The notes under the pieces: model-generated
The model's database searches: none
Seen by the model: the letters and a program-made list of their open reading frames with translations, nothing else
Told to the model about the DNA's origin: nothing
NCBI GenBank assembly: GCA_022571615.1
Contig: JACZXM010000021.1
Coordinates: 1 to 14,828 of the forward strand
Length of the DNA stretch: 14,828 bases
Source: Acidobacteriota bacterium
Lineage (GTDB): Bacteria > Acidobacteriota > UBA890 > WLXD01
Reading direction: 5' to 3'
Translations under genes and position numbers: made by a program
Shown here: positions 10,892 through 13,777 of the stretch, piece after piece
Layout of the letters: every line of letters starts with the position of its first letter
How positions within the stretch are numbered: position 1 is the stretch's first letter

Positions 10892-11155
10892 TCAGCCGGT
10901 ACCCGTGTCCCACTCTTCCCGGACCCAGTTGAACGTCGTCCGGCAGCTGTGACAGAAGTACTGCGCCAGCAGCATGTGACAGCCGTAGATCGAGCTCGGC
11001 TCGGTGTCGTGGCTGCCGCAGAACGCGCATTCGACCTGTGGCATCTTCTGACGTGGAAGCACCGGGTCGCGTCGGCGTACCGCCCCGCCGGGCTCGATGG
11101 CGAAGGGTTCGATGGACGCCAGGTCGCGCTTGCTCGTCGCCGCGGAGTCGCTCAC
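10892..11155 (-). CDS. Stand-alone PaaD C-terminal zinc-ribbon protein
   Basis: An 87-residue protein starting at GTG 11155, with AAGGTG six bases upstream; an earlier ATG at 11203 would lie inside paaC and is less likely. After a basic, unstructured N-terminus comes CAFCGSHDTEPSSIYGC, then FCHSCRTTFNW: two CxxC pairs plus another Cys. This matches the zinc-binding tail found at the end of normal PaaD proteins (CPRCGS...FGS..CK...C..C.EPF). Here it is a separate gene at the end of the oxygenase operon, while the DUF59 half is a different gene near the start. Its role should be to help assemble or mature the oxygenase, perhaps as an iron-sulfur or metal-transfer partner. It starts 13 bases after the paaC stop, supporting one transcript. 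Confidence 0.8.
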   Translation of the reverse strand: MSDSAATSKRDLASIEPFAIEPGGAVRRRDPVLPRQKMPQVECAFCGSHDTEPSSIYGCHMLLAQYFCHSCRTTFNWVREEWDTGTG

Positions 11156-11168
11156 GTGTACACCTTGC

Positions 11169-12002
11169 TCAATCGTGCACCCCCATCGCTCGGGCGTGGG
11201 CACCGGTGATCATGGCGAACGACGCCTGGTCGAAATCGGGAGATCCGTGCCGGCGGCTTGCTTCGCTCCAACCGTCCCAGTCGATCTCGGCGATCATCTT
11301 CCAGGCACCGTCAGATTGCTCAACCGGAATCCGCACCGCGCCCTGAAACAGCGGCACGGTCTTGGCCAGAAATCGCGATCGCAGCTCGGCTGCGCCAGCG
11401 TCGAGAACGCCGCCAGCCGCGAGCCGATCGAGGCTGTTGTCGACCCCATCTGGCCCGAACCATGCGATGCACTGCGGCCACACCGCATCGGTGGCCCGCT
11501 GCAACCGTTCCACGATGGTGTCGGGACCTGACAGCAGGCGCTCGAACCAGGCCTCTGCGTGCAGAGAGTGGAAGTGCTCCTCGGACACCACCTTACGTAG
11601 GCGCTGCGACAGCACCTTGATGCCACCCTGTGCCGCCGCCTGGAGGTTGACGGTCAGCAGGTTGTCGACCAAGGCGTTGATCACCACCAGCTCGGTCCAA
11701 GTCGGAGCGGGCCGATCGAGCGCCGGCAAGGACCGCCAGGTGGAAGGCTCAGTGCGCCGTGCCCCGTCGCGGGGATCCTCTGGAAGGTCCCCGAGAACTC
11801 CGCGCAACAGCCTGGCGTGCCCGAGCTCGTACTGCGCCATCGCCGAGATAGTGACGTCGGCCTCGAGCTCCGGGGCCCCCACGCACCATTCGCCGTACCG
11901 GAGCCCGAGCACCCGCTTGTTGTCGGCGAGCGTCAACAGCCAGTCCGCCAGATCTTGCCGAATCGAACCGGGCAGGTCCTCGACCCGATCGGTTGTGCTC
12001 AT
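11169..12002 (-). CDS. paaC: PaaC-like subunit of phenylacetyl-CoA-epoxidase-type oxygenase
   Basis: This is a 277-residue ferritin-like four-helix protein; the ATG at 12002 has GGGAGG six bases upstream. The LGLRYGEW...APELEADV segment (32-50) and the C-terminal GDxxWK/WDGW region are typical of PaaC, the structural partner of PaaA in phenylacetyl-CoA epoxidase. In PaaC of the known enzyme the metal ligands are lost. Here E59xxH62 (YELGHA), D113 (LVDN) and E142xxH145 (EEHFH) line up with the metal ligands of PaaA in the same operon; only the first-helix Glu seems replaced (by K29 or a neighbour). So this subunit may bind iron itself. Upstream in-frame codons to 12080 overlap paaB and are probably not used. 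I am sure of the family, less sure it is a true phenylacetate enzyme. Confidence 0.88.
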   Translation of the reverse strand: MSTTDRVEDLPGSIRQDLADWLLTLADNKRVLGLRYGEWCVGAPELEADVTISAMAQYELGHARLLRGVLGDLPEDPRDGARRTEPSTWRSLPALDRPAPTWTELVVINALVDNLLTVNLQAAAQGGIKVLSQRLRKVVSEEHFHSLHAEAWFERLLSGPDTIVERLQRATDAVWPQCIAWFGPDGVDNSLDRLAAGGVLDAGAAELRSRFLAKTVPLFQGAVRIPVEQSDGAWKMIAEIDWDGWSEASRRHGSPDFDQASFAMITGAHARAMGVHD

Positions 12003-12060: not shown

Positions 12061-12282
12061 TCATTCCTCGGTCGCCCCAAGGTCGATGATCAGCTCCATT
12101 CGGAGCGTGGTGATCATTGCCACTCGCGGCACCACAAACATCTCGACCCAGTTTTCCTCGTCGTACGTGTTTCGCGCGTACACCTTGGCGAAGTCGTCGC
12201 TGATCGCACGGATTGTGCCGATGTGACTCAGCGGCTCCTTGCGCTCCTTGCGCGCAAAAACCTCGTACAGCTTCTTGGCCAT
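12061..12282 (-). CDS. paaB: PaaB-like subunit
   Basis: This 73-residue protein begins MAKKLYEVFARKE and holds LSHIGTIRA and KVYARNTYDEE, matching the short PaaB subunit that bridges PaaA-PaaC heterodimers in phenylacetyl-CoA epoxidase. It is shorter than the enterobacterial PaaB (about 95 residues) at the C-terminus. The ATG has AGGGG four to six bases upstream. It lies 40 bases after the PaaD-like gene and 58 bases before the paaC start, an operon-like spacing. It is expected to help organise the oxygenase complex, not to catalyse. Confidence 0.82.
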   Translation of the reverse strand: MAKKLYEVFARKERKEPLSHIGTIRAISDDFAKVYARNTYDEENWVEMFVVPRVAMITTLRMELIIDLGATEE

Positions 12283-12322: not shown

Positions 12323-12727
12323 TCAGAGCGTAATGCCGTAAAGGCGCATCTCCTGGCGACCGTGGCACGACACCCGCGCCGACGACCAGTTCACTTCCCA
12401 GGTTTCGTTGATCTGTACGGTGTCAACGTCCGGCTCACGCAGCAGGCATTGCCGAATGTCATCCTTGATGAAGTCGACCGCAGGGCATGCCGTCGAGGTG
12501 AAGGTGACGTCCACCTCCACGTACCCCTCCTGCCGGCGGATGTCGCAAATCAGCCCCAGATCGACGACGCTCACCGGGATCTCCGGGTCGAGAACCTGGC
12601 GTAGCAAGTCCCACAGACCTGCGGTCTCGGGGCGGATTTTTCGTGCAATCGCCGCGGACTGGTTGCGTTGCAGATCCTGCAGCAACTTCGCCCGGCGTGC
12701 CGCTGCCGCGTCGAGCCGGTCGCTCAT
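12323..12727 (-). CDS. paaD: PaaD-like DUF59 protein lacking the zinc tail
   Basis: This 134-residue protein has an N-terminal helix, then the DUF59/MIP18 domain: DPEIPVSVVDLGLI (47-60), the STACPA loop with C81, and a C-terminal SCHGRQEMRLYGI segment. In PaaD proteins of the known paa operon this is followed by a zinc-ribbon; here the protein stops at YGITL, and the zinc-ribbon is found as a separate gene at 10892-11155. PaaD-type proteins help build the iron centre of the oxygenase. Its ATG shares one base with the PaaA stop (TGATG), so translation is coupled. The cut is clean and at a domain border, so I read it as gene fission rather than decay. Confidence 0.85.
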   Translation of the reverse strand: MSDRLDAAAARRAKLLQDLQRNQSAAIARKIRPETAGLWDLLRQVLDPEIPVSVVDLGLICDIRRQEGYVEVDVTFTSTACPAVDFIKDDIRQCLLREPDVDTVQINETWEVNWSSARVSCHGRQEMRLYGITL

Positions 12728-13668
12728 CAGAGACCCTTGAACATCCAGCTAAAGTCGCCGCGGGAGCGCTGGATCTGCTCGATCATCGCCTCGTTGCGGG
12801 GGCCGCGCGCCTTCCATCGTTTGACAACTTGGTCCCAGCCGATGTGCTCGTCCCACAGCCAGCGTTTCTCGGCAGCATCGAACCGCAGCGGCAGCTCGTA
12901 CTCCAGCTCCCAGGCGCTGTCGTCGCCATTGCGGTGCACCGGCAGCTTCAGACCGATGCTGCAGCAAAAGGGGATGACCTCATCCATCCAACCGGCACGC
13001 AGCTGGTCGTTGGTGAGGCCTTTCATCCGGTACTCGAGCTGGGTGGTGTGCGTCTTCAGGTCGTCCGGCAGCCCGAACCACTCCACCGTGAGCGGGAACA
13101 TCCAGTCCATGGCTTGCTGCACCAGCTGTTTGCCTTCGTCGCCGCTGTCGACGATTTTCTTCATCCACCGCCGCCCGTGCAGCAGATGGAACGTCTCCTC
13201 CTTGCTGACCTTGACCAGCCCTCGCTTCCAGGGGCCGTAGGAGGTGTGCTCGAACACATCGCCTAGCAACGTGTACCCGGCCTGGTCGTAGAGCGCGTTA
13301 GCGACACAGAGCTCGACCCAGGAATCGAGCGGGATGTCGAAGGCGTAAGGATAGCGAAACTCATGTGGTTCCCGCTCGTACATGAGCCAATCACGATCTA
13401 CCCCGAGCTCCTCGAGGATACGATACGCGATGTGGGCGTGGCTGAGCTCGTCCTGAATAATCGCCAGCGCCGAGATCATGCTGTTGACCGACGGCGCCTT
13501 GCGAGCGGCGTAGTAGTAGGCAGGAGCGCTCAGAAGCTCGGTGTCGCCCGAGACGGTGACAATGTGGGTCAGCTCGCGCTTGTAGCCCTCGGTCATCTCG
13601 TCGATCGACTCGACCAGGCTGCCTTCCTGTACTTTCTGGCGCAGAAGCGTGTCGACAGCGGTGCTCAC
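12727..13668 (-). CDS. paaA: PaaA-like catalytic di-iron oxygenase subunit
   Basis: A 313-residue protein; I chose the GTG at 13668, with GGAGG five bases upstream, over another GTG at 13704. It has the PaaA four-helix layout with likely iron ligands E44 (DTELL), E74xxH77 (DELSHA), D128 (LYDQ) and E158xxH161 (EETFH), all in the order expected for the catalytic subunit of phenylacetyl-CoA 1,2-epoxidase. SYGPWKRGLVKVSKEE and a TNDQLR-type stretch also match. The surrounding order is A-D-B-C-zinc-ribbon, with no reductase (PaaE) visible, so electrons must come from elsewhere. The substrate may be phenylacetyl-CoA or another acyl-CoA. This first gene is preceded by a 188-base control region with a palindrome and a candidate promoter. 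Confidence 0.9.
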   Translation of the reverse strand: MSTAVDTLLRQKVQEGSLVESIDEMTEGYKRELTHIVTVSGDTELLSAPAYYYAARKAPSVNSMISALAIIQDELSHAHIAYRILEELGVDRDWLMYEREPHEFRYPYAFDIPLDSWVELCVANALYDQAGYTLLGDVFEHTSYGPWKRGLVKVSKEETFHLLHGRRWMKKIVDSGDEGKQLVQQAMDWMFPLTVEWFGLPDDLKTHTTQLEYRMKGLTNDQLRAGWMDEVIPFCCSIGLKLPVHRNGDDSAWELEYELPLRFDAAEKRWLWDEHIGWDQVVKRWKARGPRNEAMIEQIQRSRGDFSWMFKGL

Positions 13669-13777
13669 GAATACCTCCGAGGGCCGGGTGACAAACCAGG
13701 ACACGCAGAGAGCTGCTGCGCGTGCCTCTCTTGCCGAGTGCCGCCGAGCTCTAGCAAGGCCCGCCGACTACTCGCTA

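What the first reader, a model, noticed from the sequence alone, without database searches (positions are those of the whole stretch)
11169..12002. PaaC-like subunit that keeps both ExxH di-iron motifs
In the characterised phenylacetyl-CoA epoxidase only PaaA holds the di-iron centre; PaaC is a structural partner with degenerate ligands. This PaaC-like protein has E59xxH62, D113 and E142xxH145, in the same order and spacing as E74xxH77, D128 and E158xxH161 of the PaaA next door; only the first-helix Glu appears lost (K29 region). Both large subunits could carry metal, or this may be an ancestral or differently tuned oxygenase. The motifs are seen; the metal binding is inferred.
Basis: partly seen in the sequence, partly recalled or inferred. 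Interest (0 to 1): 0.75.

Follow-up and report, generated by a model that had tools for sequence, protein, structure and literature searches.

The report
Structural oxygenase subunit keeping metal-site residues
An enzyme subunit that reviews describe as purely structural still carries, in this bacterium and in related microbes, nearly all the residues of the iron site found in its catalytic partner, with one of them swapped for an unchanging lysine, so the partner may have a chemical job of its own.

Summary
The motifs are real and in frame: E59xxH62, D113, E142xxH145 lie on four helices of a confident model (pLDDT 94.6) and align with the di-iron ligands of PaaA. The sixth place (PaaA Glu42) is Lys29. 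This is no oddity of one gene. K29 plus the five ligands stand in 119 of the 120 listed homologues (the exception lacks its N-terminus); all six are among 21 invariant columns of 277, at pairwise identity down to 28%. A site-blind tree puts sampled members in one clade with their own kind of PaaA, mostly in the order A-D-B-C, in several bacterial phyla and haloarchaea. Unexpectedly, the 120 best hits of a search seeded with haloarchaeal PaaC all keep six ligands, whereas the 117 close relatives of E. coli PaaC examined lost at least three. So the ancestral PaaC probably had a complete di-iron site, which E. coli's lineage lost and the window's lineage changed by Glu-to-Lys. D113 and H145 persist in degenerate PaaC too, so only E59, H62 and E142 are diagnostic. 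No metal was shown. I favour a single-metal site (about 0.4) over a metal-free lysine-bridged cluster (about 0.35). Every subunit misses the curated Paa cut-offs: a sister family, substrate unknown.

The parts
11169..12002 (-). PaaC-like subunit, 277 aa, site residues K29, E59, H62, D113, E142, H145
   Evidence: PF05138 140.9 bits; TIGR02158 96.5 bits, below its 133.35 cut-off
11916..11918 (-). codon of Lys29 (place of E. coli PaaA Glu42)
   Evidence: HMMER alignment with the PaaA chains 4iit_A and 4ii4_A; Lys in 119 of 120 and 80 of 80 loci
11817..11828 (-). codons E59..H62, first ExxH motif
11664..11666 (-). codon of Asp113
   Evidence: D in 120 of 120; G in 3 Chloroflexota loci; E in L153
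11568..11579 (-). codons E142..H145, second ExxH motif
   Evidence: both 120 of 120
12727..13704 (-). PaaA-like partner with all six di-iron ligands; start uncertain (GTG 13704 or 13668); Ile and Tyr at the places of the E. coli lysine-bridge residues K68 and E49
   Evidence: PF05138 184.6 bits; TIGR02156 126 bits, below 280; states EEHDEH with I and Y (L001)
12323..12727 (-). PaaD N-terminal-like DUF59/FeS_assembly_P protein
   Evidence: PF01883 55.6 bits
12061..12282 (-). short PaaB-like protein, 73 aa
   Evidence: PF06243 29.3 bits, cut-off 27
10892..11203 (-). zinc-ribbon protein (PaaD C-terminal domain as a separate gene), overlaps the end of the PaaC-like gene; start uncertain
   Evidence: PF23451 40.1 bits

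Best explanation
The window encodes a multicomponent oxygenase, probably of CoA esters, of a sister family of 1,2-phenylacetyl-CoA epoxidase, with genes A, D, B, C and a zinc ribbon. Its C subunit descends from a PaaC that carried a complete six-ligand di-iron site. In this family the helix-B Glu became a constant Lys while the other five ligands were kept. I take it that A activates oxygen at its own complete di-iron centre. In C, the ammonium of Lys29 stands where the first metal would be, and E59, D113, E142 and H145 (perhaps H62) hold one divalent metal. Charge bookkeeping suits this: three carboxylates, one Lys and one M2+ sum to zero, as four carboxylates and two M2+ do in PaaA. The site then steadies or tunes A across the A/C helix-bundle interface rather than acting as a second oxygenase centre. 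Shown here: the residues, their constancy, the clade and the predicted fold. Inferred from the tree: the ancestral six-ligand state (about 0.85). Inferred from chemistry only: one metal (about 0.4). Speculative: the role of the site.
Against: No metal, activity or coordinates were seen. D113 and H145 are kept in degenerate PaaC too. A basic residue at place 29 also arises in PaaC whose site is degenerate (Arg in 5 of those 12 rows), which favours a plain salt bridge. Three Chloroflexota rows have G at 113 and one haloarchaeal row Q at 62. If the first metal were gone, H62 should be free to drift, yet it is kept. The root between A and C is a midpoint; the window C scores almost equally with PaaC (52.8 bits) and PaaA (49.1 bits), and in two haloarchaeal loci (L104, L151) the C profile scores the partner A higher than C, so calling it PaaC rests on operon place, tree and the TIGR02158 score.
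Confidence: 0.5

Rival explanations
1. The site in C is metal-free. Lys29 forms a salt-bridge network with E59, D113, E142 and the two histidines, a frozen lysine bridge that stabilises the four-helix bundle and the A/C interface; it is conserved for structure.
For: Lysine in place of a Glu ligand is seen in metal-free class Ie ribonucleotide reductase R2 (PMC11846895, passages; that both His are kept there is recalled). In the iron-free crystal structure of E. coli PaaA, K68 bridges three carboxylates (PMC4498308, passages). Arg at place 29 in 5 of 12 degenerate PaaC rows; D113 and H145 kept there.
Against: E142 is unchanged in 120 of 120 and E59 in 119 of 120 homologues, not even to Asp or Gln; that is tight for a structural salt bridge. 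In class Ie R2 the Lys seems to replace a different Glu, that of the second ExxH (inferred from residue numbers), so the parallel is loose.
Confidence: 0.35
2. C carries a working dinuclear site, with Lys29 as a ligand or a carbamylated lysine that restores the missing carboxylate, so the complex has two oxygen-activating centres per heterodimer.
For: Five of six ligands in PaaA-like order, all constant. The model aligns with PaaA over 270 residues including the C-terminal part. Haloarchaeal-type PaaC keeps all six.
Against: Lys as a ligand in this fold is not known to me (recalled, not searched). The partner A already has a complete site. A protonated Lys would repel a second metal (inference).
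Confidence: 0.12
3. The residues are an inert relic, kept only by recent common descent.
For: D113 and H145 also persist in degenerate PaaC.
Against: Constancy at 28% minimum and 49% median pairwise identity, across bacterial phyla and haloarchaea, on long branches. In close relatives of E. coli PaaC the same positions did decay (0 of 117 keep E59 or H62).
Confidence: 0.05

Closest known systems
1,2-phenylacetyl-CoA epoxidase PaaABC(D)E of E. coli and Klebsiella
   Same: PF05138 A and C subunits in one operon, PaaB-like and PaaD-like (DUF59 and zinc ribbon) genes, same predicted fold
   Different: C keeps K plus five site residues, where E. coli PaaC has C-L-Q-D-A-H; A lacks the lysine bridge (K68/E49 are I/Y); PaaD is split into two genes; no PaaE-like gene among the ORFs scanned; subunits under the curated cut-offs
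Haloarchaeal PaaABCDE (Haloferax, Halorubrum)
   Same: C keeps ligands (all six there); separate zinc-ribbon gene in the Haloferax records
   Different: C has Glu, not Lys, at place 29; A keeps the lysine bridge; order A-B-C-D-E; lies in the canonical C clade
Class Ie ribonucleotide reductase R2 (metal-free; PMC11846895, passages)
   Same: a ferritin-like subunit in which Lys stands for a Glu ligand; 7mmp_B is a weak Foldseek match (E 0.018)
   Different: three Glu changed, apparently the Lys at another helix; a DOPA radical does the work
SSO1313 of Sulfolobus (4mud)
   Different: 15% identity; in the alignment (with the window's PaaA) it seems to keep all six ligands; its function is not known to me
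BoxB benzoyl-CoA epoxidase and aldehyde-deformylating oxygenase
   Different: no A/C pair (BoxB monomeric, PMC4498308)

Membership tests
PaaA_PaaC fold family PF05138 | profile match over the curated cut-off | tested here: met
   140.9 bits against 28.5
1,2-phenylacetyl-CoA epoxidase subunit PaaC (TIGR02158 equivalog) | score over the curated cut-off 133.35 | tested here: not met
   96.5 bits; Thermus relative L103 81 bits, haloarchaeal relative L104 no match at 1e-10
1,2-phenylacetyl-CoA epoxidase complex | PaaA, PaaB, PaaD partners over their cut-offs | tested here: not met
   A 126 against 280; B 24.7 against 85.45; D 60.7 against 108.15
1,2-phenylacetyl-CoA epoxidase complex | phenylacetate pathway genes PaaK and PaaZ in the genome | tested here: inconclusive
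   no match over either cut-off in G000, G001, G002, G003, G007, but G241 with a canonical-type pair also misses both and G171 misses PaaK, and only 1 of 14 controls passes PaaK; G000 is 71% complete
1,2-phenylacetyl-CoA epoxidase complex | epoxidation of phenylacetyl-CoA | not testable with these tools
   needs purified complex
Structural, metal-free PaaC (E. coli type) | site residues lost at the places of E59, H62, E142 | tested here: not met
   all three kept in the window; in 117 close relatives of E. coli PaaC E59 and H62 are gone in 117, E142 in the 115 with a letter there
Six-ligand di-iron carboxylate protein | two ExxH motifs and two further carboxylates | tested here: not met
   five of six; Lys29 in place of the helix-B Glu
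Metal-free class Ie R2-like site | absence of metal, Lys-carboxylate network | not testable with these tools
   no coordinates or metal data

The most novel reading that the evidence does not exclude
Metal-carrying PaaC is the ancestral and still living state: haloarchaeal epoxidases hold a di-iron centre in both A and C, and the window's family holds a di-iron centre in A and a lysine-modified one-metal centre in C, making these epoxidases of this kind with two coupled metal sites per heterodimer. The 'structural' PaaC of the characterised bacteria is then a derived, disarmed form.
Probability: 0.35. Interest if true: 0.8.

Novelty: new variant of a known kind. Interest (0 to 1): 0.6.

Why it matters
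The characterised complex has its four non-haem irons in two PaaA and none in PaaC (PMC9493321 and PMC4498308, passages). If whole clades of PaaC keep a metal site, the role of the second subunit, and perhaps control of the reaction, must be looked at again. It also gives a natural series (six ligands, Lys plus five, two left) for asking how an enzyme subunit becomes a structural one. The test is direct: metal content of Haloferax PaaC and of one window-type C.

Tried and rejected
Considered and rejected: a frame or start artefact (one intact ORF, homologues of the same length); an isolated oddity of this genome; inert relic. An ordinary phenylacetate pathway was tested with PaaK and PaaZ models: nothing over the cut-offs in the window's genome and four kin, but canonical-type genomes G241 and G171 fail in part too, so this says little. 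Gene neighbours gave little on the substrate: of ten representatives of recurring neighbour clusters scanned, three had no Pfam match and the rest were a PLP decarboxylase, an Rce1-like protease, an OmpA protein, DUF6941, a methyltransferase, a SpoIIE-type regulator and one enoyl-CoA hydratase/isomerase; only the last (its cluster in 13 of 87 loci) suits CoA chemistry, and none of the nine window ORFs scanned is one. No coordinates are released by the structure tool, so distances between the site residues could not be measured; a dimer or metal-loaded model could not be run. The Foldseek and VIA lists are capped at 50 rows.

Limits of the counts: 78 of the 80 loci hold the search pattern that contains M55 to H62 and 19 the one with G42 to 50, so E59 and H62 are favoured there; K29, D113, E142, H145 are not. 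The word-based protein set (120 listed of 131) is the fairer one. In one search the 87 'window-type' rows were chosen by Lys at place 29 and the 12 'canonical' rows by their degenerate states, so those columns are descriptions; one search recounts without that choice. In one search, 11 hits under 200 aa were dropped and duplicates removed (220 to 208 rows). One search used 117 of 120 E. coli-type hits (those under 260 aa); the six-ligand set is the best 120 of 4031 hits of a profile made from four six-ligand proteins, so it samples their neighbourhood only. Of the eight C rows, L148 and L150 repeat genomes seen before (L006, L091). One search kept P0081, whose N-terminus is missing; one search left it out. 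The DKHGEH paralogue of L110 was left out of the tree. In one search no C was assigned in 22 of 87 loci because the A and C profiles cross-match.

Full report
WHAT IS THERE. The minus strand of the window holds a compact gene row: a PaaA-like gene (13704-12727), a DUF59 protein like the first half of PaaD (12727-12323), a 73-residue PaaB-like protein (12282-12061), the PaaC-like gene of the finding (12002-11169), and a zinc-ribbon protein like the second half of PaaD (11203-10892), with a Pfam match for each. In the alignment with solved E. coli PaaA these fall on E72, H75, D126, E155 and H158, and Lys29 on E42; the ligand numbers are from PMC4498308 (passages). That review and PMC9493321 (passages) call PaaC structural and place the iron of the complex in PaaA and PaaE.

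IS IT CONSTRAINED. Of the 120 listed homologues (of 131) of the protein search, 119 have K-E-H-D-E-H at the six places; the exception, P0081, has no matching N-terminus. In the 119 rows 21 of 277 columns are invariant and all six places are among them, although pairwise identity goes down to 28% (median 49%). In the 80 genome loci the row that best fits the C profile, picked without regard to place 29, has K-E-H-D-E-H in 77 and K-E-H-G-E-H in 3 Chloroflexota; 78 of these loci hold a search pattern that includes E59 and H62, so those two are favoured there. Among 87 rows chosen by Lys at place 29, E59, E142 and H145 stand in 87, H62 in 86, D113 in 84. Of eight C rows fetched later (two repeat known genomes) seven are K-E-H-D-E-H and one has Glu for D113. 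Partner A rows of this kind have E-E-H-D-E-H (80 rows, a group defined by that set), with one later exception, EEHDQH in L153.

WHAT OTHER PaaC PROTEINS DO. The canonical C clade of the tree has 16 rows: E. coli, Azospirillum, Mesorhizobium, Paracoccus, Saprospira, three haloarchaea (L105, L106, L113) and eight genomes of the window's own phylum. Four of them (the haloarchaea and L121) have all six ligands; the other 12 are degenerate. Over the 16, D113 stands in 15 and H145 in 16, but E59 and E142 in 4 and H62 in 5. In 117 close relatives of E. coli PaaC all have L at 59 and Q at 62, and none of the 115 with a letter at 142 has Glu. Against expectation, the best 120 of 4031 hits of a search seeded with the four six-ligand proteins all have six ligands; those that bear an organism name in the listing are haloarchaea, Haloferax volcanii among them. 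How the remaining hits stand was not examined. L105 and L121 pass the curated PaaC cut-off (172.1 and 272 bits against 133.35), so these two are PaaC by the accepted definition.

HISTORY. A tree of 80 rows built with the site columns taken out gives an A clade (100/99), a canonical C clade (100/97) and a window-type C clade (99/82). A and C split in the same way into canonical and window-type groups, so the two systems parted after the A/C duplication. Scoring place 29 as Glu, Lys or lost needs two changes (single columns need 7, 3, 4, 3, 8 and 0 in the order 29, 59, 62, 113, 142, 145). The root is a midpoint, but A and the basal canonical C rows have six ligands, so a six-ligand ancestor is favoured if the root lies between these groups. 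The window-type family is found in MAGs or genomes labelled Acidobacteriota, Gemmatimonadota, Chloroflexota and Solirubrobacter, in Thermus and in haloarchaea. Some MAG labels (Bacillota, Proteobacteria) were not checked.

WHAT SYSTEM. A, B, C and D fall under the curated cut-offs for 1,2-phenylacetyl-CoA epoxidase. The genome (71% complete) and four kin have no PaaK or PaaZ over the cut-off; this is weak, as G241, which has a canonical-type pair, misses both and G171 misses PaaK. G171 has both a canonical and a window-type pair. A PaaB-like gene is present in 83 of 87 loci examined and a zinc-ribbon gene in 67 (one genome is in twice, as L006 and L148). Of 65 loci where C could be assigned, 49 show A-D-B-C with or without the zinc ribbon next. 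Haloarchaeal copies lie beside 2Fe-2S proteins and enoyl-CoA hydratases, four of five also beside an acyl-CoA or benzoate-CoA ligase, so a CoA ester is the likely substrate (inference). The partner A lacks the lysine bridge of E. coli PaaA (Ile and Tyr at 68 and 49).

MECHANISM. Shown: conserved residues, clade, predicted fold. Inferred: a six-ligand ancestor. Unknown: metal. The charge count (three carboxylates and one Lys) suits one divalent metal; the constancy of E59 and E142 suits metal better than a loose salt bridge. Against it stand the loss of a first-shell ligand, the exceptions at D113 and H62, the Arg at place 29 in 5 of 12 degenerate PaaC rows, and the metal-free class Ie R2 precedent with Lys for Glu (PMC11846895, passages). 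I give one metal 0.4, metal-free lysine network 0.35, two metals 0.12.

IN PRINT. Searches of the open library listed no paper that by title, abstract or the passages I opened treats ligand states of PaaC outside E. coli. PMC13186573 (abstract and passages) treats PaaA/PaaC as markers and has 'ligand' 0 times and 'iron' once; PMC2653477 (passages) has a paaC gene tree, with no ligand states in what I saw. The primary structure paper of 2011 is not held, so its text was not seen.

Noticed in passing
L105:5980-6795, L106:5968-6801, L113:6236-7105, L121:90-857: PaaC of haloarchaea and of one genome of the window's phylum keeps all six di-iron ligands (120 of 120 listed hits of a follow-up search), contrary to the usual view of PaaC.
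   Followed up: yes
window 12730-13704: The PaaA-like partner lacks the E. coli lysine bridge: K68 and E49 are Ile and Tyr, a swap shared by the clade (77 Ile and 79 Tyr of 80 rows).
   Followed up: partly
L110:7387-8142: Mesorhizobium sp. AR07 has a third PF05138-like protein after PaaE with D-K-H-G-E-H at the six places, on a very long branch; role unknown.
   Followed up: no
window 12061-12282: The 73-aa PaaB-like protein scores higher with TIGR04031, an rSAM-partnered candidate RiPP family (28.3 bits, under its 57.2 cut-off), than with NCBIfam's PaaB model (24.7); some of those RiPP candidates may be short PaaB-like proteins.
   Followed up: no
L153:3803-4795: A soda-lake haloarchaeon has a PaaA partner with E-E-H-D-Q-H and a C with K-E-H-E-E-H, so both sites vary there.
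   Followed up: no
L022, L058, L077: Three Chloroflexota C proteins have Gly at the D113 place while the other five site residues stay.
   Followed up: no
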